From the NCBI GenBank assembly GCA_944368945.1, contig CALVXH010000005.1, forward strand, positions 1 through 39,633: a stretch of 39,633 nt of DNA, written 5' to 3'. The DNA is from an uncultured Bacilli bacterium (GTDB lineage: Bacteria > Bacillota_I > Bacilli_A > RFN20 > CAG-826). Position 1 is the first letter of the stretch; every line of letters begins with the position of its first letter. Made by a program: the position numbers and the translations under genes. Shown here one piece after another: positions 4,709 through 17,365 of the stretch. The notes beneath the pieces were generated by a model. It was given only the letters and a program-made list of their open reading frames with translations, made no database searches and was not told the origin of the DNA.

Positions 4709-5704
4709 TTATAAATTTTTAGATAAATAATCATTTAATCTATCAAATTCATAATACATATAAGCTTCATATAAAGCTTCAAATAGCAAATAGTCTTTAT
4801 TTAAACTTGGTTTCTTAAATTTCAAATTTAAATGTTCAATAACAATTAAATTAACATCTAAGAAAGTATTTTCAGTTTTTAATAATTCTTTTAACTCATT
4901 TTCTTCTTCTACTTTTAATCTTGTGCAAACCTTATTTAAATAGCTTCTAGCGCTTTCATAATAAGTTGATATAAACATCGTTACATAATAAAGTAATATT
5001 TTATTTGCCTCTTCAACTTTATCTTCCTTTAACTTAAGATGCTTATTAATTTCATCCATAAAGTAAACAATCTTTTCGATTAAACGATAATTTTGTCTTG
5101 TTAAGTAAATTATCGTCTCATCAACATATTTTTGATACTTACCAAACTTATCATCTAAAGTTTTGTTATTGAATAATTGTGCTTTATATATCCTATCAAA
5201 TATTTTCTCTTTATATTGATTAAATAAATAAAGCTCACTTGTACCAAAATCTAATAAGTTAGACACAACAATTATTTTTGCTCCCGCGCCAATAAGTGAA
5301 GTTAAATAACTTAAAAAAGCATCATAATCACTCGAAGCATATCTTTCTAAATCATCCAAAATAACTACCTTATCAGCTTTTAACTTATTGATTTTTAATA
5401 AATACTCTAAAGTTTTCATAGTATCAACTTCTGATCCAAAGGGATTAATAACATTTGGAACAATCTCAACAGTTTTAGAAGTTTTACCATGAACTTTCAT
5501 ATATAAAGCTGTATTTATCTCATCAATATTTTTTAAACCATGTAAAGATACATAATAAAATCTAATATCTTTCATTTTGTTGTCTTTAATTAGTTCATGT
5601 AGCAAAAATGTTTTACCACTTCCCCATGGTCCATCAAGTAAAACTATATTATAAGGACTATCAATAAAATTTTTTAATTCAGTTAGTAAAGACTCTTTAT
5701 TCAT
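4709..5704 (-). CDS. KAP-like P-loop NTPase
   Basis: About 331 residues. Walker A GPWGSGKT sits near residue 24 and Walker B VVILDDLER near residue 114. This pair, with WGSGKT directly after the N-terminus and DDLER in Walker B, is typical of KAP-family P-loop NTPases, several of which serve in phage defence or at the membrane. The transmembrane insertion seen in many KAP proteins is not apparent; the C-terminal half is helical and charged. ATG at 5704 is preferred because GGGAGA lies just upstream, whereas the upstream ATG (5722) has no ribosome binding site. It stands alone next to a tRNA gene used as an integration site. A defence role is only a guess from family and place. Confidence 0.75.
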   Translation of the reverse strand: MNKESLLTELKNFIDSPYNIVLLDGPWGSGKTFLLHELIKDNKMKDIRFYYVSLHGLKNIDEINTALYMKVHGKTSKTVEIVPNVINPFGSEVDTMKTLEYLLKINKLKADKVVILDDLERYASSDYDAFLSYLTSLIGAGAKIIVVSNLLDFGTSELYLFNQYKEKIFDRIYKAQLFNNKTLDDKFGKYQKYVDETIIYLTRQNYRLIEKIVYFMDEINKHLKLKEDKVEEANKILLYYVTMFISTYYESARSYLNKVCTRLKVEEENELKELLKTENTFLDVNLIVIEHLNLKFKKPSLNKDYLLFEALYEAYMYYEFDRLNDYLSKNL

Positions 5705-5888
5705 AATGATCTCCCTTTTCATTAATATTTTATAACCTTGAAATTAATATGGCGATAAAAATTAAATTTTCGATTTCAAACTGTAATTAAAAACTTAATT
5801 ATTTATATTTTCTTTTTAAAAAATAATTGTAATTTGCAGGAATTTTAGTTTATTTAATGCCATAACATATATCAAAAATAAATTATAT

Positions 5889-7867: not shown

Positions 7868-8984
7868 TTATTCATTTAATTTGATTTTATTAGATATATA
7901 ATCGCCTATTTCATTTTTATTACGATCCTTATACCTAAGATAAAAATCAGCTGTTATGCTAGGCGAAGCATGACCTAGCCAATTTGAAATTCTCGTAATT
8001 TCAAAGCCGTTTTGAACTAAGAAAATAGCACAGCTATGGCGAAAATCATGTAATCTAATATGATGTAAGTGAGCTTTACTTGCAGTTGTTTCGTTCATTC
8101 TTCTAATACTAGATTCGCCAATTAAGCATTTAACATTTGTAAGATCTTTTTTATTTTTTGCATTTGAAAATACAAACTCATTAATATCATTACTTCGTCT
8201 CAAATTAATTAATAATTTTTACATCTGGAAGCAGAGGATAATATCTGTTAGAAGATTTTGTTTTTAATGAATTAATTTTTGTAATATGATCAATATTCTT
8301 GCAATTAATAGAACGTCTTATATATAAAATATCGTTATTAAAATCGATATCTTTGTACATTAGACCTCTTAATTCTCCAATTCTAAGTCCATAATAGAAT
8401 AGCAACTTAAAGATTAATATTTCTCTATTACTTTCCGCACAAGAAATAAATTTTTCAAAGTCATCAAGAGAATAATAATTCATTATTTTTCGCTCTTCAA
8501 AAATATTTTTATTTATTGTAATCAGTGATGCATTTAATTTAACGATATGATTATTATTTAAGTAATGAACAAACTCACGTGTTACATATAAAATTTTGCT
8601 TATTGATCTTTTAGATAGATTTAAATTATTAATTCTGGTAGAAATTGCAATCAAGTCCTTATTAGAAAACTTATTTATTTTTTTATTATCAAAAAATAGC
8701 ATAGTATAATTAACAAACTTTGAATAATAAGAATTGAAGGTACTATCTTTTACTCTTATTTTTAATTCGTCTAAAAAATTATTAAAAATATTTTTATTAG
8801 ATGAATTTTGCTTATCGCCATAATTTAAAAAATCTTTATTGCGATAGATATAATCCAAAGCACTTTTTTTAGTCTTAAAATAGTTTTTATTTTCGTCCAA
8901 AATAATTGTGTGATTGCAACGATGGCAATAGTTTTTAATATACCACCTTTTATATTTTGAATCATAATAAACATTTGCACCCAT
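7868..8984 (-). pseudogene. tyrosine recombinase (integrase), interrupted by one extra base
   Basis: The first frame (8984-8205) carries the N-terminal part, a SAM-like core-binding region, and the first catalytic Arg in YYGLRIGELRGL. The second frame (8203-7868) carries H-x-x-R in RLHDFRHS, the second His in WLGHAS and the nucleophile Tyr in TADFYLRYK. The frames join cleanly if one T is removed from the T5 run at 8216-8220, giving ...PDVKLLINLRRSND. All catalytic residues are therefore present and only the frame is broken. A ribosome binding site AGAGGTG precedes the ATG at 8984. It would have integrated the element into tRNA-Ala. Read-through, a sequencing error in the homopolymer, or real decay are all possible. 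Confidence 0.88.
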
Positions 8985-9005: not shown

Positions 9006-11390
9006 TTAAATTAATCTCTTTTTCTTTTTTGTATCAACAATTTTCTTTTTGTTAACATATTTAGTAAAAAATTTATAATTTTTAAATTCTTTGCCATACT
9101 TTCTTGATAAGTTTGCATATATGTCTTTCAAGGATATTTCAGGATAGCTTTTACACGCATCTTTTATTATGTCCAGATATTTATTATCATATTCACTTTC
9201 GCTTAATTCTGGATTAAAAGCTGGACATGTTTCAATATCTTTAACTAATAAAGAATTTTGTTTTTCAAAGTCTTCGAGAGTAGCATATTTTGCTCTATAA
9301 ACGCCTGAATCAAATTCACGTTTATCTTTCTTCAAAATTAAAGGTTCGAAAAATCTAAAGTAACAATCAGTAGCATAATTTCCTGCGTAAGCTTCTTTAT
9401 AGATTATGAAAAAATCTTTTACATTTTGCTCTTCATTACCACTTGTAATTATCTTCATATCAACTTTTTTGTAATTAAAATTAGATTCTATTTTTGACCT
9501 TAATAAATAAACATTATGATTTATAAAAGCATTAAATCTATTAAAAATCGAAATATAATTTCTTGTACTGATAAAAGATCTTGAAATTGTGTTTGTTGCA
9601 TTAATAAAAGCATCTAGAAATGGCTTTATTATTAGTGTATAAAATGGGAAAGAATTTTTTATTTTTTTAACAGGCTTTAATTTTATAACTGTGCCAAAAA
9701 TTTCAAGAAGATCGGCATTAATTGAGCCAATTCTTTGATCATTTGCAAACACCTTAATAAAAGGAAAATATCTTATCGTATATGTGTGTCTAATAAGCTT
9801 GATAAATTTATTATATTCATCATTTTTCTGATTAGGGAATCTATCAGATTTATCTTTTCCTGAATTAGTAAATTGATTGCCACGTTCTTTGCCAAGTTCT
9901 GATAAATCATAGATTCCGCAATCACTTAATCCTGATAATTCATCAAACCTCATTCCAAGTCTAAAAGTATCCTGATTCCAAATTTTTGAAAAATGAGATC
10001 TATCATAAAAATTTCTTGTATTGTTTTCTTTAAAAATATCAAAATCAAACGATGGAAAATATTCAGAATTTTCTCTTTTATAGCTAAGTCTTAAACTAAT
10101 ATTTGAATATACATTTGGATCTTCATTATTGAACAAATAATAAGCTTGTCCATACTCGCTTAACATATCCAAAATGGAAATTGGCTCACTACCATTAAAC
10201 AATGTATTTCTATCGTAAATAAATTTTTTAGGAAAATTATAAAGTTTTAAAAGTCTATCTATTTCACTTTCTCTTTTAACTACATCTTCTTCGTTATTGT
10301 ATAAAGCTTTTATTTTTAAAAATAATAACTTTATTTGAAGAGATAATGTTATCCATTTTTTCTTTTTTGCTTCATCGATATAGTTTTCATATTCTTTAAA
10401 ATCAAATTTATAAAAAATATTACGATAGTCTATTAATATTTCTTCTAATTTTTTCTTAAAAATACGTTGAGTTGTCATAACAGCTTGTGTGCAGAATGAA
10501 TCCTTTCCGGTGTTCATTTCTCCCACAACTAAAACTGTTACATCAGTTCTTTTTTCTATAAAATTTTCATTTTTCTTTCTTAGATTATCTATTTTCTTTT
10601 GAGCGTGCTTCCAGCATAAAATTATTAAAATTATGAAAGCCAGGAAAAGAATAATAAATGCTGGTATGCCTTTAAAAGAATAGTTTAAAGTCGAAAACAC
10701 GCTCAAAACAAAATAATAAAAGACTACAGGAATCAAAATAACATTTCCTAAAGCAAGAAAAATAAAAGCTATTATATCAATTATCAGGGCCATAATATTA
10801 AAGTAAAAAAGCACAATCATTAATAACACTATAAAATAAAATCTATGTTCTTTGTTGTATTTAAAATACTCTTTAAAAAAATTCTTAATTTTTAATAATT
10901 TGGTGTTTGAAAACTTTTCGAATCGCAATAACCCTTTAGTTTTACTAACTAGTCCTGGATCTTTTTTTGTTTGTGTTGATAAGGAAACTAACACAACACT
11001 CATTATTACTATAATAATTGCAAAAATTATTACATTTAAATAAAGAGTTACATTGTAAATAAAATCAATTTTTAAAATAAAATAATCATAATTAAAAATT
11101 GTCAAAAATTCAGCTTTTAAATATTCAATAACATTATTAAAATTTGATGGTAAAAATTTTATTCCAAAGTTGTTTGTATAGCAATATTCCCACGTTATAA
11201 ATTTTGGAGTTGGATGTAAGCCAATTAAGCATGCAAAATAATATATTATTGAATTAAAAAGAAAATACAGAGAGTATACAATACGAATATACGCTTCATA
11301 TTTTAAGCTCGTTAGCAATATAAACATAAATAATATCAGAATGATATTTATTTGTGCGATTCTATTAAATTTTAACTTATTTATTTTCAT
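9006..11390 (-). CDS. large multispan membrane P-loop ATPase, candidate Zot/pI-like assembly protein
   Basis: 794 residues. About six hydrophobic segments lie within residues 10-270, then a cytoplasmic domain with P-loop VVGEMNTGKDS near residue 290. Further conserved-looking blocks follow: GIYDLSELGKERGNQ (about 480-495) and FPFIKVFANDQR (about 540-550). The order P-loop, GKERGNQ-like block, then DQR block recalls Zot/pI-type ATPases of Gram-positive filamentous phages, from memory of the family. In classical pI the membrane segment comes after the ATPase, so here the layout is reversed and the protein about twice as long. It overlaps the upstream membrane gene by 14 bases and is the last gene of the exported-protein operon. 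A conjugation-type ATPase is the alternative, but no partner genes are seen. Confidence 0.7.
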   Translation of the reverse strand: MKINKLKFNRIAQINIILILFMFILLTSLKYEAYIRIVYSLYFLFNSIIYYFACLIGLHPTPKFITWEYCYTNNFGIKFLPSNFNNVIEYLKAEFLTIFNYDYFILKIDFIYNVTLYLNVIIFAIIIVIMSVVLVSLSTQTKKDPGLVSKTKGLLRFEKFSNTKLLKIKNFFKEYFKYNKEHRFYFIVLLMIVLFYFNIMALIIDIIAFIFLALGNVILIPVVFYYFVLSVFSTLNYSFKGIPAFIILFLAFIILIILCWKHAQKKIDNLRKKNENFIEKRTDVTVLVVGEMNTGKDSFCTQAVMTTQRIFKKKLEEILIDYRNIFYKFDFKEYENYIDEAKKKKWITLSLQIKLLFLKIKALYNNEEDVVKRESEIDRLLKLYNFPKKFIYDRNTLFNGSEPISILDMLSEYGQAYYLFNNEDPNVYSNISLRLSYKRENSEYFPSFDFDIFKENNTRNFYDRSHFSKIWNQDTFRLGMRFDELSGLSDCGIYDLSELGKERGNQFTNSGKDKSDRFPNQKNDEYNKFIKLIRHTYTIRYFPFIKVFANDQRIGSINADLLEIFGTVIKLKPVKKIKNSFPFYTLIIKPFLDAFINATNTISRSFISTRNYISIFNRFNAFINHNVYLLRSKIESNFNYKKVDMKIITSGNEEQNVKDFFIIYKEAYAGNYATDCYFRFFEPLILKKDKREFDSGVYRAKYATLEDFEKQNSLLVKDIETCPAFNPELSESEYDNKYLDIIKDACKSYPEISLKDIYANLSRKYGKEFKNYKFFTKYVNKKKIVDTKKKKRLI

Positions 11391-11742
11391 GGTGATACTC
11401 CCATAAAAAAATATTTTTTTGAAGATATATTAATTTATCATCACCAATAAAAACAAAGGTATAATCATTACTGACTCTAACTATGCCCTCATCTAACTGA
11501 AATTTATAAAGGAAATCAGAATTTTTATTATTAACTGATTGTAAAACATGTAATTTATTGTCTTCAGAAAACTTTAAACCGAAATTAAAACTTTTATCAT
11601 AAAACTCTTTATTTATTAAGCTTAAAGCGCTTATATCAATTGATTGACTAATAGAAAAAAATGGACTTAAAAAATATGAAAGAATCCACGTAATAAATGC
11701 TAAAGAAAATATTATTATTAATAACTTAACACTGGCTTTCAT
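11377..11742 (-). CDS. small membrane-anchored protein of the element
   Basis: 121 residues with one N-terminal membrane segment (VKLLIIIFSLAFITWILSYF) followed by about 90 extracytoplasmic residues rich in beta-type pattern, ending in WEYHHENK. It lies between the large anchored protein (gap of eight bases) and the ATPase (overlap of 14 bases), and is clearly translated with them. In filamentous phages this slot holds the minor coat protein VI. The analogy rests on position and topology only; I see no sequence motif. Confidence 0.7.
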   Translation of the reverse strand: MKASVKLLIIIFSLAFITWILSYFLSPFFSISQSIDISALSLINKEFYDKSFNFGLKFSEDNKLHVLQSVNNKNSDFLYKFQLDEGIVRVSNDYTFVFIGDDKLIYLQKNIFLWEYHHENK

Positions 11743-11750
11743 ATTTCTAA

Positions 11751-13661
11751 TTACTTTCCTTTAATTAGCTTAATTATAAATTTAATCAGTTTTACAAGTA
11801 GTCCTATAATAAATGCAATAACTATCAAACCTAAAATAATCATAATTGCTTTAACTATTGGATTGTTTAACAAATCATTAAAAAAATTGCTAGCATCATT
11901 AATAAAATAATCATATAAAGTTGGCGCCGCATATCCTGAGAATGAAATATATGACAAATATGTAGGATCACCTAGGCAATTAAATGTTATTTTTTGACCA
12001 TTATTTTGTCTTGCAGTAGCTTGCAAAATTGTTGCACCATAAATTTCATGGCAAGTTGTAACTCTTTTAATTAAGGATTCGTACTGATTATAAGTATCAC
12101 TTTGATGCGATGAGTAAACATTTATTACGCCATCATCAACCACAGTTCGTTTACAGTATTCATCACTATTAGCCCCGTCAATCATGATTGCAAATTGATA
12201 ATCTTCTTTACAGGAGTCAAAAAATTCTCTACTTAATTTAAAATCATCAGAATTATATTCTTGATTATAGGTATTTAGATTAACAATTGGTTCAAAAGTA
12301 TATTCTCTTAAATAAGGATAATGGCCCCACGCAGAGCTTAAGTTATTTTCTTGTTTGTAAGTATAATTTTCTTTATCGTAATCAGAATATATTGTCTTTT
12401 TATATAATTCACCATTATTAAGCACTTTAAAATTTTGAAAACCGTTATAAAGAGAATTTAGATCAGGATTATAGTAGTGTCTTACGATGGATCCTGATTG
12501 TTCATCTTTTTTTACTCCTGAATTATCGGTTAACGACTCATAATTATCATAATTTAAGTTAAGTGTTTCTGTTGTTCCCTCTGCTGAGAAAATTTTTACA
12601 TCTTCGTTATAATCAATTAAATTTGTTCTTTTGCCGTTTGCTGAGACTCCCTGACTTAAATTTCCTAAATCAGATTCATATAAACCGCAATAAATATCAC
12701 CATAAGAATCTGATTTGTCCTCATGATAAGTCCATATAATTGATTCTTCTGTTGATGAAACTGGTGCATATCTAACATATTCATATTGTGCTTTTAAATA
12801 TTGAACATTGACAGAAATAAGATCTGAGAGATCTAACCTATCATCAAATTTTACTAATAAATACGTTAATTCTTGAGCTTCTTTTACGGTAGTATCTTTA
12901 GCAGTCTCACCATAAGAAAAACCAAAAATTTTAGGGAAATAATCCTCTGCTTCAAGTACTCCTAAACACATAACTAATTTTGCTTCATAAGTATATGTAT
13001 TGTTTTCAAAGTAATAAAAATTACCATCAAGCCAGTCAGTACCTTTTGGATAAATTAATTCAGGTTCTTCATCAATCGCAAATAATCTCTTAGTACCATC
13101 AGCATTTAAAAATTCAAAATTATATAACTTTGCCCTTAATACATCACCATCTGCAATAGAACTATAATCACTTCTAACATTTTTTAAAACAAACTTATAA
13201 AAATAGTTATTTTTATAATAATAGTAATTAAGCTTATCGCCAGCATTAGTTAAAGCTATAATTTTTGTCCCATTAACATATTCATTTTTATCTACATCAA
13301 AATTTGTAGAAAAATCAATTGTCGTATACAAAGTTTGATTATCAATTAAATAGTTTGTTGAAAAATAAAAATATAAATCATTATTGTTAGGCTTCATTGC
13401 AAGAAATTTAAAAGCTTCATTTTCTGCTAATAAGCAATCATCAAAGTTATAATTTAAATATTCGTAAGATGAAATTTTTCCATCGCTATCCTTGTCGCCA
13501 AACAACAATCTCAAATCATAGCTCACATTTACTTTATTAAAGTCAATTGTAGTATTAAGCGTTGGCGCATTTTCCATTGCAAAAATAGCACCCTGTTTTA
13601 AGACTGGTTGAGCGTTCATTAAGCAAAATAGAGTTGTTAAAGCGTTAAGAATCTTTATCAT
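11751..13661 (-). CDS. secreted, C-terminally anchored surface protein with EF-hand loop (candidate adsorption protein)
   Basis: 636 residues. A signal peptide (IKILNALTTLFCLMNAQPVL, then a likely cleavage near AIFA) leads a long Asn/Tyr/Asp-rich extracellular region. One membrane segment follows near 600-625 (IMIILGLIVIAFIIGLLV), then a short basic cytoplasmic tail (KLIKFIIKLIKGK). Near residues 55-68 is a complete EF-hand calcium loop, DKDSDGKISSYE, with ligands at 1, 3, 5, 7, 9 and 12 and Gly at 6. Topology (signal peptide, large ectodomain, C-terminal anchor) matches filamentous phage adsorption protein III. It overlaps the lipoprotein gene by four bases (ATGA). No LPXTG motif is present. 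Confidence 0.75.
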   Translation of the reverse strand: MIKILNALTTLFCLMNAQPVLKQGAIFAMENAPTLNTTIDFNKVNVSYDLRLLFGDKDSDGKISSYEYLNYNFDDCLLAENEAFKFLAMKPNNNDLYFYFSTNYLIDNQTLYTTIDFSTNFDVDKNEYVNGTKIIALTNAGDKLNYYYYKNNYFYKFVLKNVRSDYSSIADGDVLRAKLYNFEFLNADGTKRLFAIDEEPELIYPKGTDWLDGNFYYFENNTYTYEAKLVMCLGVLEAEDYFPKIFGFSYGETAKDTTVKEAQELTYLLVKFDDRLDLSDLISVNVQYLKAQYEYVRYAPVSSTEESIIWTYHEDKSDSYGDIYCGLYESDLGNLSQGVSANGKRTNLIDYNEDVKIFSAEGTTETLNLNYDNYESLTDNSGVKKDEQSGSIVRHYYNPDLNSLYNGFQNFKVLNNGELYKKTIYSDYDKENYTYKQENNLSSAWGHYPYLREYTFEPIVNLNTYNQEYNSDDFKLSREFFDSCKEDYQFAIMIDGANSDEYCKRTVVDDGVINVYSSHQSDTYNQYESLIKRVTTCHEIYGATILQATARQNNGQKITFNCLGDPTYLSYISFSGYAAPTLYDYFINDASNFFNDLLNNPIVKAIMIILGLIVIAFIIGLLVKLIKFIIKLIKGK

Positions 13662-14275
13662 AATGATTCCTCATATTTACCTGTCAAAGGATTGAAAAAA
13701 TATATTTTTTCACAATAAATTCTCGCATGCGTATATTGAGGTTGCTTTCTTTCGTTGTCTTCTGGAGTTGTACTGATTGTCGAAAAAAAGTAATAACCAG
13801 ATTCAGCTAATGATGTACGAAGAGTAATATATGTACCATCTTCAATTTGCCCATAAGAAAAAAAGACATCTAATTTATTTCCATCAGAAAAATAATCATC
13901 TATATTTTCATAATTTGTTAGATTTTGAAAAATATTTGAAACATCGTAAAAGGTTAAAACATTGCCATTATCGTCTGTAATTGTATCGTCTATTTTGACT
14001 AAAGGACTTTCAGTCAAATTTATCGCCTTATCATAATTAGAATAATTATCAGTATCATAATTTTCATTGCTTGAATAGAAATGTAAGTACATGACATTTT
14101 CAAATTTACCAGCAACATCACTTTCAATAGTTGGATAACTTCCAATCAATAATTTTGTATGATCAATTTCACTTGTTTTTTTAACGAACGAAAAGGAGGA
14201 GGAGCAACTAGTTAATAGCATAGTTGCTCCCGCAATAAGAATATAAAAACTAAAATTTTTAAAGCTTTTTCTCAT
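13658..14275 (-). CDS. exported lipoprotein of the element
   Basis: 205 residues. The N-terminal signal has a basic start (MRKSFKNFSF), a hydrophobic core and the lipobox LTSC, so Cys would be lipidated and the protein held on the outer face of the membrane. The mature part begins with Ser-rich sequence and is rich in Asp, Tyr and Ser; I do not recognise a domain. Its ATG shares a base with the stop of the 54-residue gene (TAATG) and its end overlaps the next gene by four bases, showing tight translational coupling. A lipoprotein may alter the host surface, for example to block superinfection, but that is a guess. Confidence 0.75.
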   Translation of the reverse strand: MRKSFKNFSFYILIAGATMLLTSCSSSFSFVKKTSEIDHTKLLIGSYPTIESDVAGKFENVMYLHFYSSNENYDTDNYSNYDKAINLTESPLVKIDDTITDDNGNVLTFYDVSNIFQNLTNYENIDDYFSDGNKLDVFFSYGQIEDGTYITLRTSLAESGYYFFSTISTTPEDNERKQPQYTHARIYCEKIYFFNPLTGKYEESL

Positions 14276-14439
14276 TAATCAAAAACTACTCCACTTTCAT
14301 CTAAAGTTATTTCACGAATAGGCGTTCCATCTATAACCTTGATTGAATTAATAATCAAAGCAATAATAGCGACAACGAAAAGAATAAAGATAACAACTAC
14401 CACTATTTTTAATATTTTTTTCGTTTTCTCGCTTTTCAT
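14275..14439 (-). CDS. 54-residue single-span protein, candidate coat protein
   Basis: A basic N-terminus (MKSEKTKKILK), one hydrophobic span of about 21 residues (IVVVVIFILFVVAIIALII), then an acidic tail ending REITLDESGVVFD. With Lys inside, the tail would face outward. A basic end, one helix and an acidic end in about 50 residues is the make-up of filamentous phage major coat proteins, though the polarity is reversed relative to coat VIII. Its tail matches the last 13 residues of the upstream 401-residue protein (SEITLDESNIIFE), and 19 bases of DNA are identical. It starts eight bases after the upstream stop and shares a base with the next start. Confidence 0.75.
   Translation of the reverse strand: MKSEKTKKILKIVVVVIFILFVVAIIALIINSIKVIDGTPIREITLDESGVVFD
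14296..14314. repeat. 19-bp direct repeat, copy 1 (shared C-terminal tail)
   Basis: TTCATCTAAAGTTATTTCA is identical to 14469-14487. Both copies encode EITLDE near the C-terminus of two adjacent genes, in the same frame. Confidence 0.9.
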
Positions 14440-14447
14440 TTTTTCAC

Positions 14448-15653
14448 TCACTCAAAGATAATATTAGATTCATCTAAAGTTATTTCAGAAACAAATGTGT
14501 TGTCAACCATTAATCCAAAAGTAAAATCATATGTTTTACCACATTGATTTCTTGTAATGTCTAAAATTGGTATATATGTTCCGACAGAAGCGCTTGGTGC
14601 ATAAGTGTCGAGCATAGTTTTTACTTCGTCTGCAGCATAGGCTAGATCCATTTCAATTCTATCCCCAGCAACATAGTCTGGATCAATGTATGAAAGCCAT
14701 TCGCCAATTGCTTCAGCGTTTTCAGCAGATAAATAACTACTATCCCATTTTGCTGTAAATGTTGCATCTGTAGATCCTGAATAATCAACAGTACCTTCGC
14801 TATAATTTATTTGACCTGTCAAAACTTCAGAAAGGGTGATTGAATTTATAAAATTTTCATATAAAGAACTTGTGTTTAAATACATTCTTTTCTGTGATTC
14901 ATCAAACTTTACAGACTTATCGCTTCCAGCCGCAGACGTGTCTAAAGCATCTGCATTAAAAGTAACATCGACTGAGTTAACTATCTTTCTACAATCAACA
15001 GTACATGAAGCTGATAAGTTAGTTCCATCTTTGGTTGTAGCAGTTACCTTAATTTGTTTTGAAAAACGTTGTGCCATTCTTATAGTTGCTTCTTTTCCAG
15101 ATGGAGTTAAAGTAACATAATCAGTTACTGTCTTCCCGCTTGCCCATCCACTACTGTCGATAAAAGCAATACTCCAATCAAGTTCTTGGTTGGTTGCTGT
15201 TGCAGGTTCTATTGTAGCAATTAGTTTATATTCTGTAGCATTTACTTTTTGCATTTGAATCTGGTGTAAATTAGATGCAGCAAGCTCTGAATCACTTGAT
15301 TCTACAATTGTCAAAGTTGCAGTATAATCTTTTGTCTTGTCGTTAACTTTAACTTTTACTTCGTAAGTATATGTTCCAACATTGACACATTCGTTAACTA
15401 CTTCACCGTTAGAATTTTTAATTACGACTTCGTATGTAGCTCCATCAGGGACAATTATTTCAAGTTCCTTCTTTGCGCCATCATACTCAAAGGATTTTGA
15501 CTCAATTTTTACATCTTTGAAATCAGGGTCTACTTGAGTAAACCATCCTTGTTCATTGCCATAAAATCCAATAGTTCCGGCAACTCCGGCAACAGCTAAA
15601 ATTGCAATTGCTGACGCTAATACTACGACTACTTTGTTACTTTTCTTTTTCAT
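14448..15653 (-). CDS. membrane-anchored extracellular protein with Ig-like domains
   Basis: 401 residues. The start ATG at 15653 has GAGGTGG six bases upstream, so I prefer it to the ATG at 15677, which has none. An uncleaved-looking N-terminal membrane segment (VVVVLASAIAILAVAGVAGTI) leads the ectodomain. Residues about 45-125 look like an MBG-type beta domain (FEYDGAKKELEIIVPDGATY). Residues about 130-225 resemble a BIg2 bacterial Ig-like domain (IEPATATNQELDWS ... KVTATTKDGTNLSASCTV). The rest is unassigned and ends SEITLDESNIIFE. It is the first gene of the operon, next to the non-coding region, and presumably the most expressed. A surface or virion-tip role is plausible. Confidence 0.75.
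   Translation of the reverse strand: MKKKSNKVVVVLASAIAILAVAGVAGTIGFYGNEQGWFTQVDPDFKDVKIESKSFEYDGAKKELEIIVPDGATYEVVIKNSNGEVVNECVNVGTYTYEVKVKVNDKTKDYTATLTIVESSDSELAASNLHQIQMQKVNATEYKLIATIEPATATNQELDWSIAFIDSSGWASGKTVTDYVTLTPSGKEATIRMAQRFSKQIKVTATTKDGTNLSASCTVDCRKIVNSVDVTFNADALDTSAAGSDKSVKFDESQKRMYLNTSSLYENFINSITLSEVLTGQINYSEGTVDYSGSTDATFTAKWDSSYLSAENAEAIGEWLSYIDPDYVAGDRIEMDLAYAADEVKTMLDTYAPSASVGTYIPILDITRNQCGKTYDFTFGLMVDNTFVSEITLDESNIIFE
14469..14487. repeat. 19-bp direct repeat, copy 2 (shared C-terminal tail)
   Basis: Second copy of the repeat at 14296-14314, 173 bp away, inside the end of the 401-residue gene. Confidence 0.9.
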
Positions 15654-16140: not shown

Positions 16141-16455
16141 GTGAAATTATTTTATTATCAAATTGTGTTCAATGAAGTTTTAAAAAAGTTATTAGAAAGC
16201 AAAAAAGTAACGCAAAGATCTTTGGCAAAAAACTTAAATTTAGCTGAATCAACAGTGAGTGGATATGTCAGCGGAACAAGTGAGCCTGATTTTGATACGC
16301 TTAAAAAAATAGCAAATTTTTTTAATGTATCAGTTAGTATTTTTTTTGATGAACCAAATAATTTAAATATCGAAATGAACCATGATGACTATAATTTAAT
16401 CGACTATCATCAACGAGAAATTCAACGAATATTAGCTAAATATAAGCATGACTAA
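16141..16455 (+). CDS. XRE-family HTH regulator 1
   Basis: Up to 104 residues from GTG. The helix-turn-helix region (VTQRSLAKNLNLAESTVSGY, then PDFDTLKKIANFFNVSVSIFF) is classical. The C-terminal helix (DYHQREIQRILAKY) follows the pattern L-x3-Q-x2-I-x2-I-x2-KY shared with the next two genes. The start is uncertain: GTG at 16141 and GTG at 16165 are possible, and neither has a clear ribosome binding site. First of four tandem XRE genes, divergent from the structural operon, and a likely repressor of it. Confidence 0.8.
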   Translation: MKLFYYQIVFNEVLKKLLESKKVTQRSLAKNLNLAESTVSGYVSGTSEPDFDTLKKIANFFNVSVSIFFDEPNNLNIEMNHDDYNLIDYHQREIQRILAKYKHD

Positions 16456-16458
16456 AGT

Positions 16459-16740
16459 ATGAAAAATAAAATCAAAGAAATTGCAAAACAAAAAAATATT
16501 ACACTCAAAGATATAAGCAAAAATTTAAATATTTCTTATAGGAGCTTGCAAAGATATTCTGCTGGAACACGTGAACCTAATTATAAAACAATTGTCGATA
16601 TAGCAAATTATTTGAATGTCACTGTAGATGAGCTTTTAAATGTTGAGAACAAAAAACTCATTTCTATTTCGCTGAAAGATTTTAACGAGCTAAAAGCAAT
16701 TCAAAAAAGGATAAATGAAATTTTTAAAAAATATGAATAG
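16459..16740 (+). CDS. XRE-family HTH regulator 2
   Basis: 93 residues, starting three bases after the previous stop. The HTH (ITLKDISKNLNISYRSLQRY, then PNYKTIVDIANYLNVTVDELL) is complete, and the C-terminal helix KAIQKRINEIFKKYE matches the tail pattern of regulators 1 and 3. No clear ribosome binding site is seen, so translation probably couples to gene 1. Its recognition helix differs from those of its neighbours, so each paralogue probably prefers a different operator. Confidence 0.85.
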   Translation: MKNKIKEIAKQKNITLKDISKNLNISYRSLQRYSAGTREPNYKTIVDIANYLNVTVDELLNVENKKLISISLKDFNELKAIQKRINEIFKKYE

Positions 16741-16779
16741 AATTCAAAGCTTCATGCCAAAATTCTTAAGGTGGTTTAA

Positions 16780-17097
16780 ATGAAAATCTATTTAAAGCAG
16801 CGCATCCATGAAAATGGTTTTACTCTAAAAGAAATCGCTAAAAAATTAAACATTCAATATGCGACTCTTTCAAATCGGGCTCGTGGCGTTCATGAACCTG
16901 ATTATAAGGCGTTATATGATATTTCTAAAATTTTGCATATTCCAATGGATTATTTTTTTGTTTCAGTAATTGAGTCAAAAAATTTGTTAATTTCAGATGA
17001 AGACAAAGAAGCTCTTGCGTTTCATCAAAAAGCGATTAACAAAATATACAAAAAATATGGTCTGCTCGATTCTAAGAGGAAACACAATGAAAAATAA
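16780..17097 (+). CDS. XRE-family HTH regulator 3
   Basis: 105 residues with a good ribosome binding site (AAGGTGG six bases before ATG). HTH FTLKEIAKKLNIQYATLSNR followed by PDYKALYDISKILHIPMDYFF. The C-terminal helix AFHQKAINKIYKKYG shares the tail pattern of regulators 1 and 2, pointing to tandem duplication. The gene overlaps the next by 11 bases. Confidence 0.88.
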   Translation: MKIYLKQRIHENGFTLKEIAKKLNIQYATLSNRARGVHEPDYKALYDISKILHIPMDYFFVSVIESKNLLISDEDKEALAFHQKAINKIYKKYGLLDSKRKHNEK

Positions 17098-17365
17098 TCT
17101 TAAGCATTTAAGAAAGACTCATAATTTAACTCAAAAAGAAGTCGCTAAAATTTTAGGAATAAGTCAACAACAATACAGCTCATATGAATTATCAAATACT
17201 TTTATTACAATCGACAAAGCTTTAATACTTGCTGATTTTTATGATGTTACCTTAGATTTTTTAGTTAAGAGAAGAGTAAAAAGAAACAATATTGAACGAA
17301 TAAAAGATATCGAATCTAATTTAAAAATTATTAGGACAAATTTAGAAAAAAATAAAATTTTATAA
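17087..17365 (+). CDS. XRE-family HTH regulator 4
   Basis: 92 residues from the ATG at 17087, which has AGAGGA six bases upstream; a longer upstream frame is not needed. The HTH LTQKEVAKILGISQQQYSSY is the classical Cro/CI type, followed by ITIDKALILADFYDVTLDFLV. The C-terminal tail (DIESNLKIIRTNLEK) differs from that of regulators 1-3, so this is the more distant member. It is the last gene of the element before the right repeat. Confidence 0.88.
   Translation: MKNNLKHLRKTHNLTQKEVAKILGISQQQYSSYELSNTFITIDKALILADFYDVTLDFLVKRRVKRNNIERIKDIESNLKIIRTNLEKNKIL

What the first reader, a model, noticed from the sequence alone, without database searches (positions are those of the whole stretch)
14275..15653. 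Two adjacent genes share a C-terminal tail (ITLDES-x2-[VI]-F-[DE]) and 19 identical bases
The 401-residue surface protein ends SEITLDESNIIFE and the 54-residue membrane protein ends REITLDESGVVFD, both predicted outside the membrane. The small protein could be a shortened duplicate that keeps only anchor and tail, or the tail could be an assembly or sorting signal recognised by the export machine. I know of no described tag of this form.
Basis: seen in the sequence. Interest (0 to 1): 0.7.

Follow-up and report, generated by a model that had tools for sequence, protein, structure and literature searches.

The report
Shared C-terminal strand in surface proteins
Neighbouring membrane-anchored surface proteins of a virus-like element end in the same short tail, which looks like one loose strand of an immunoglobulin-like domain; it is kept in distant relatives, so it probably lets the proteins clip together outside the cell.

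Summary
The 401- and 54-residue proteins end SEITLDESNIIFE and REITLDESGVVFD and share 19 bases. The 19-base identity is not kept in the closest relative, but both protein tails are.

At least 12 loci, including two chromosomal pilus clusters and an unannotated human-faecal phage record, carry the tail. It comes in sets: five loci have it on two adjacent proteins, and the faecal record on three in a row (VTSVSLDTTFMQF, VTSLGINNTEIEF, VTGITLDKEVIEF). A score matrix built only from first strands of Big_2 (PF02368) domains in related bacteria puts 15 of 20 tails above the 99th percentile of 1,124 C-termini.

The tail is therefore an isolated Big_2 first strand (A/A') at an exposed C-terminus. In six of eight tail proteins with a usable match, the internal Ig domain lacks that strand's signature. 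I propose C-terminal donor-strand assembly. The 54-residue protein, only anchor plus strand, would act as base or initiator, comparable to TapA with TasA. Binding was not shown. The host element has a P-loop ATPase unknown to Pfam, PHROGs and PDB sequences.

The parts
14448..15653 (-). 401-aa membrane-anchored surface protein: N-terminal TM (residues 8-26), two Ig-like domains (about 44-118 and 128-222), a variable third region (223-388), C-terminal tail SEITLDESNIIFE
14451..14489 (-). DNA for the C-terminal tail of the 401-aa protein (SEITLDESNIIFE)
14275..14439 (-). 54-aa protein: N-terminal TM plus tail only (...GTPIREITLDESGVVFD); occupies the slot of the 185-198 aa partner family in related elements
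14278..14316 (-). DNA for the C-terminal tail of the 54-aa protein (REITLDESGVVFD)
13658..14275 (-). 205-aa predicted lipoprotein of the same operon, translationally coupled (TAATG overlap); no tail
   Evidence: kept at 79% identity in G070
11751..13661 (-). 636-aa exported protein with a C-terminal TM; counterparts of 450-700 aa in most related elements; no tail
11377..11742 (-). 121-aa single-TM protein, conserved upstream of the ATPase
9006..11390 (-). 794-aa membrane P-loop ATPase, marker gene of the element family; about 5 predicted TM segments; no Pfam, PHROG or PDB-sequence relative
7868..8984 (-). Tyrosine integrase of the element, interrupted by a frameshift (intact in G070)

Best explanation
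The tail is a free Big_2-type first strand (A/A') at the outward-facing C-terminus of membrane-anchored surface proteins. It most likely works as a C-terminal donor strand: after export the tail of one protein inserts into, or adds on to, a beta-sandwich of another protein of the operon. This would link the surface proteins head to tail into an appendage, coat or virion complex. The 54-aa protein is then a bare donor strand on a membrane anchor, acting as base or initiator, as TapA is thought to do for TasA. Shown by computation: the tail is conserved across distant relatives, it occurs in sets on neighbouring proteins, and it has a position-specific match to the Big_2 first strand. Inferred: outward topology, binding in trans, the identity of the acceptor, and the assembled product.
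For: (1) The tail persists in divergent homologues while the rest drifts: in a 10-member alignment (21-30% identity to the first row, apart from one 91% pair) only M1 and the tail Phe are invariant. (2) It comes in sets of adjacent genes: window 401+54; G070 C34 401+54; G070 C4 432+187; own-genome contig C76 161(partial)+185; G049 320+195; faecal record MT835493.1 364+367+198. (3) A PSSM built only from Big_2 first strands puts 15 of 20 tails above the 99th percentile of 1,124 C-termini; permuting its columns matches this in 2 of 500 runs. (4) The internal Ig domain of the 303-aa homologue models as Big_2 (lambda gpV Z 8.8; Paenibacillus Big_2 Z 8.1). In six of the eight tail proteins with a usable match, that internal match starts at profile position 18-20, so the A/A' part is missing there. 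(5) The 54-aa protein and the 185-198 aa partners show no Big_2 core of their own, which points to use in trans. (6) The tail follows the last predicted strand after only a few residues, as at the boundary between tandem Big_2 domains. (7) Precedents: P. gingivalis FimA uses a C-terminal donor strand (PMC5954841, citing Xu et al. 2016); TapA and TasA share a terminal strand sequence and TapA is proposed to give the first donor strand (PMC9674648).
Against: No complex was predicted or seen; AF2 left both tails at pLDDT below about 30. Two tail proteins keep A-like residues in their internal Ig domain (L253 367 aa, L050 342 aa), so a vacant acceptor groove is not general. The 54-aa (top 2%), 187-aa (26%) and 195-aa (40%) tails match the Big_2 strand weakly or not at all by score. 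Many elements with the same ATPase have surface proteins without the tail, so it is not essential to the system.
Confidence: 0.48

Rival explanations
1. The tail is a recognition peptide: a C-terminal hydrophobic-x-Phe read by an export, sorting or quality-control protein (a pilus/ATPase export machine, or a PDZ-type protease), not a subunit-subunit strand.
For: The terminal Phe/Tyr is the most invariant residue. The motif is enriched on N-anchored proteins (13 of 163 vs 5 of 593, Fisher 4e-6; the motif was defined from the same set). Two chromosomal copies sit in Tad-like pilus operons. Host pilins of these genomes also tend to end in hydrophobic-x-Phe/Tyr (21 of 38 end in Phe or Tyr).
Against: Conservation extends about 13 residues with Big_2 strand spacing, more than a short recognition peptide needs. 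Elements with the same ATPase but no tail exist. G098 has a tail protein but no Tad-like ATPase was found.
Confidence: 0.25
2. The tail folds back in cis and completes its own protein's Ig-like domain (a relocated or circularly permuted first strand).
For: Six internal Ig domains lack a recognisable A/A' signature while their own C-terminus has one.
Against: The 54-aa and 185-198 aa partners have the tail but no recognisable Big_2 core. AF2 did not place the tail in cis. Only a few residues separate the last strand from the tail.
Confidence: 0.14
3. The tail is left over from ancestral tandem Big_2 arrays cut just after the first strand of a lost domain, with little present function.
For: The tail has the spacing and sequence of a Big_2 boundary, and Big_2 proteins are common in these genomes (13 matches in this genome; 53 of 57 genomes).
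Against: Conservation in distant homologues, the fixed end point just after the strand, and presence on an unrelated partner family, including a protein that is only anchor plus tail.
Confidence: 0.08
4. Recent local duplication or gene conversion between the two adjacent genes, or chance.
For: 19 identical bases in neighbouring genes.
Against: The relative G070 keeps both protein tails without the DNA identity (longest run 10 nt), and other loci have the same paired tails.
Confidence: 0.03

Closest known systems
Big_2 bacterial Ig-like domain (PF02368)
   Same: The tail has the spacing and residues of its first strand (VTSVSLDKTSLTL); the internal domain of homologues has the Big_2 fold in prediction
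   Different: Only the first ~13 of 79 profile positions are present, at the very end of the chain, also on proteins with no other recognisable Big_2 part
Type V pili of Bacteroidales (FimA/Mfa1)
   Same: Outward-facing C-terminal strand proposed as donor in head-to-tail assembly (PMC5954841)
   Different: Those subunits are processed by a protease in an outer-membrane organism; here TM-anchored proteins of a Bacilli-like virus-like element with a membrane ATPase; no sequence relation tested
TasA/TapA biofilm fibres of Bacillus subtilis
   Same: Main subunit and small accessory protein share a terminal strand sequence, read as donor strand (PMC9674648)
   Different: Donor strand is N-terminal; operon differs; no sequence relation tested
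Inoviridae (filamentous phages)
   Same: Relatives carry a rolling-circle Rep, integrase, membrane ATPase, small TM proteins and large exported proteins
   Different: The ATPase has no Zot match in Pfam and about 5 predicted TM segments; the window copy shows no Rep

Membership tests
Big_2 (PF02368) | first-strand signature V-T-x-[VI]-x-[LI]-[DN]-x-[ST]-x-[hydrophobic]-x-[hydrophobic] | tested here: met
   15 of 20 tails above the 99th percentile of 1,124 C-termini; column permutation control 2/500
Big_2 (PF02368) | whole domain over the curated score in the same chain | tested here: not met
   Tail proteins score below cut-off or not at all
Donor-strand assembled filaments | terminal strand shared by several subunits of one operon | tested here: met
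   Sets of two or three adjacent genes with the tail in six loci
Donor-strand assembled filaments | acceptor beta-sandwich lacking that strand | tested here: inconclusive
   Internal match starts at profile position 18-20 in six proteins, but at 4 and 12 in two others; AF2 shows seven strands in domain 2 of the 401-aa protein
Donor-strand assembled filaments | strand inserted into a neighbouring subunit; polymer formed | not testable with these tools
   No multimer prediction or experiment available
Inoviridae | pI-type ATPase with Zot as closest Pfam domain and one or two TM segments (criteria of PMC6813254) | tested here: not met
   No Zot match among 15 family members; about 5 TM segments predicted in the window protein
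Inoviridae | replication initiator in the same element | tested here: inconclusive
   Rep_trans or G2P-like protein in several relatives; none recognised in the window element
Sortase-anchored (LPXTG) C-terminal signal | LPXTG motif, hydrophobic helix and charged end at the C-terminus | tested here: not met
   Single TM is N-terminal; no LPXTG in the tail

The most novel reading that the evidence does not exclude
A previously undescribed family of integrating, membrane-ATPase-driven virus-like elements of gut Bacilli builds its surface structure or virion by C-terminal Ig donor-strand exchange between membrane-anchored subunits. The same strand code is used in some host Tad-like pilus operons, so virus and host appendage subunits could in principle interlock.
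Probability: 0.15. Interest if true: 0.85.

Novelty: new variant of a known kind. Interest (0 to 1): 0.62.

Why it matters
If right, a short C-terminal strand borrowed from a common Ig domain is a reusable connector among membrane-anchored proteins in these Bacilli-like bacteria and their virus-like elements, a setting for which I found no donor-strand assembly described beyond TasA-type fibres. It gives a searchable motif and a direct, small test (an 11-residue deletion). It also points to an unannotated element family whose central ATPase is absent from Pfam and PHROGs.

Tried and rejected
Viral-contig scans with the ATPase and with the 401-aa alignment found no relatives. A DNA pattern for the tail in the own genome gave hardly more hits than its control (38 vs 32) and was too narrow to match the known tails. 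AF2 on the 401-aa protein (5 rows) and a 303-aa homologue (10 rows) resolved the Ig domains but not the tail or the third region. Profile comparison gave no support for the 205-aa lipoprotein or the 54-aa protein being homologous to the partner family. The ATPase profile found no relative among PDB sequences. A resemblance of ATPase motifs (TE..KERGN, RH..T, D.QR) to Zot/pI proteins is recalled only and is not supported by Pfam. The class of the host ('Bacilli-like') is my reading of gene content and composition; the records are unnamed.

Full report
WHAT WAS CHECKED. The window is one contig (G000:C5) of a 1.6-Mb bacterial genome assembly in 131 contigs. On the - strand lies a compact operon: 401-aa protein, 54-aa protein, 205-aa lipoprotein, 636-aa exported protein with a C-terminal TM, 121-aa TM protein, 794-aa membrane P-loop ATPase, and a frameshifted tyrosine integrase. 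The 401- and 54-aa genes are 8 nt apart, and the 54- and 205-aa genes overlap (TAATG), which suggests coupled translation. The tails and the 19-nt identity are as reported.

DNA COPY OR PROTEIN CONSTRAINT. In G070, a relative with 82% identity in the 401-aa protein, both tails remain (SSITLDETNVVFE, REITFNENGVVFE), but the longest common DNA run is 10 nt instead of 19. The shared tail is therefore not explained by a recent DNA copy.

HOW FAR THE TAIL REACHES. I searched 146 genomes of the same taxonomic family with the ATPase (16 positive) and the 401-aa protein (9 positive), then all 224 held genomes of the family with a profile of tail proteins (28 positive), and read the C-termini of the surrounding genes. 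Tails: G070 C4 432 aa GGISLDNESIVF and 187 aa VEINLDIPGVIF; own-genome second element on C76, 161 aa (cut by the contig end) DSINLSGSSVVF and 185 aa ESIYIENSGVIF; G098 421 aa TSFSIDSTGITF; G065 VSVNTPNIEF and VDVTESTIVF; G049 320 aa QSLELDETTIVF and 195 aa WNLKLDNNLIIY; G146 303 aa EDIVISGDTNIIF (two loci); G004 323 aa SAINVEGGSIVFD; G170 398 aa VTSVEPDVTGIDF; G206 348 aa VTGIATGVTNHVF. In a 10-row alignment only M1 and the tail Phe are invariant. Elements in L041-L047 and L051-L053 have the ATPase but no such tails; L043/L044/L051/L052 end ESVQIGDGSDIEIGKN or similar, a possible variant.

AN INDEPENDENT TRIPLE. A tblastn search of 50,697 phage records found one record with the ATPase: MT835493.1, unverified, from human faeces, 57 kb, without annotation. 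There, three successive N-anchored proteins end VTSVSLDTTFMQF (364 aa), VTSLGINNTEIEF (367 aa) and VTGITLDKEVIEF (198 aa), and the next genes are the exported C-TM protein, a small TM protein and the ATPase. The 198-aa protein aligns with the 185-195 aa partners of other loci (15-37% identity).

WHAT THE TAIL IS. The spacing is that of the first strand pair of a Big_2 Ig-like domain. I collected Big_2 domains in related genomes, took their first strands by anchoring on the domain core downstream, and built a 13-column PSSM from 31 of them. Of 20 tails, 15 exceed the 99th percentile and 17 the 95th percentile of 1,124 other C-termini; the best background hit is a Ser-rich end. Permuting the PSSM columns reaches the observed mean percentile in 2 of 500 runs, so the match is position-specific and not only composition. 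Limits: the partner-family tails of 187 and 195 aa do not score well, and the 54-aa tail only at the top 2%.

STRUCTURE. AF2 gives two confident Ig-like domains in the 401-aa protein (44-118, 128-222) and one in the 303-aa homologue (about 45-160). The latter matches Big_2 structures best (lambda gpV Z 8.8, rmsd 1.8 over 78 residues; Paenibacillus Big_2 Z 8.1, rmsd 1.9 over 75). The tails are unplaced (pLDDT below about 30), which says nothing for or against trans binding. A Big_2 HMM of this bacterial family matches the internal domain from position 18-20 on in six tail proteins, but from 4 or 12 in two. So the first-strand signature is often missing inside and present at the end, but not always.

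MECHANISM. Donor-strand assembly in trans is the best reading: the strand is at the exposed end, occurs on all or most N-anchored neighbours in a tail-bearing operon, and is kept on a protein that is nothing but anchor and strand. The parallel to TapA/TasA (shared terminal strand in main and accessory protein; PMC9674648) and to the C-terminal donor strand of P. gingivalis FimA (PMC5954841) is one of working principle, not of descent. Which protein accepts the strand, and whether the product is a filament, a coat or a virion, is inference.

CONTEXT. The ATPase family (15 members aligned) has no usable match in Pfam, PHROGs or PDB sequences. Relatives have Rep_trans/G2P-like initiators and integrases, and some a reverse transcriptase of the type used by diversity-generating retroelements. 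These are inovirus-like features, but the published inovirus criteria (Zot as closest Pfam domain, one or two TM segments; PMC6813254) are not met. Most genomes of the family (166 of 196) have a Tad-like pilus ATPase. In G049 and G004 tail proteins are part of that operon, and many pilins end in hydrophobic-x-Phe/Tyr. This is why a recognition-peptide rival keeps a quarter of the weight.

VERDICT. The feature is real, conserved, and partly explained by a known domain's first strand. Its use as a C-terminal connector on membrane-anchored proteins of an undescribed element family would be a new variant of donor-strand assembly, pending a multimer or binding test.

Noticed in passing
window 7868-8984 (-): The element's tyrosine integrase is split by a frameshift; the counterpart in G070 is intact (369 aa), so the window copy may be a decaying element.
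   Followed up: partly
window 9006-11390 (-); alignment of 15 relatives: Membrane P-loop ATPase family without any Pfam, PHROG or PDB-sequence relative, marking an apparently undescribed group of integrating elements in this bacterial family.
   Followed up: partly
G000:C76 (L039): A second, divergent element of the same family in the same genome, also with a tail-bearing pair (161 aa partial + 185 aa).
   Followed up: yes
L213-L252; own genome G000:C54: Minimal Tad/Flp-like pilus clusters in 166 of 196 genomes searched; the 50-75 aa pilins (MSEIKGQLLG...) mostly end in hydrophobic-x-Phe/Tyr.
   Followed up: partly
L140 (G049), L178 (G004): Tail-bearing Ig proteins lie at the end of chromosomal Tad-like operons; in G049 no pilin gene was seen and a tail pair sits in its place.
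   Followed up: partly
L040 5898-6929, L048 374-1459, L149 170-1201: Reverse transcriptases beside tail-type or C-lectin-like surface proteins (L040 by PHROG match, the others by sequence resemblance): likely diversity-generating retroelements in these elements.
   Followed up: no
L253 (MT835493.1): Unannotated 57-kb 'Bacteriophage sp.' record from human faeces is the only phage record found with this ATPase; it also holds genes that look cellular, so it may be a prophage in a host contig.
   Followed up: partly
window 16141-17365 (+): Four consecutive small HTH regulators next to the operon, divergently oriented.
   Followed up: no
window 4709-5722 (-): AAA/KAP-like NTPase (337 aa) downstream of the element; whether it belongs to the element was not settled.
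   Followed up: no
TadE-like ~113-aa proteins in L178, L213-L252: They end in a conserved pattern such as LTIRISRSTVIGFYN, loosely similar in spacing to the tail; relation not tested.
   Followed up: no
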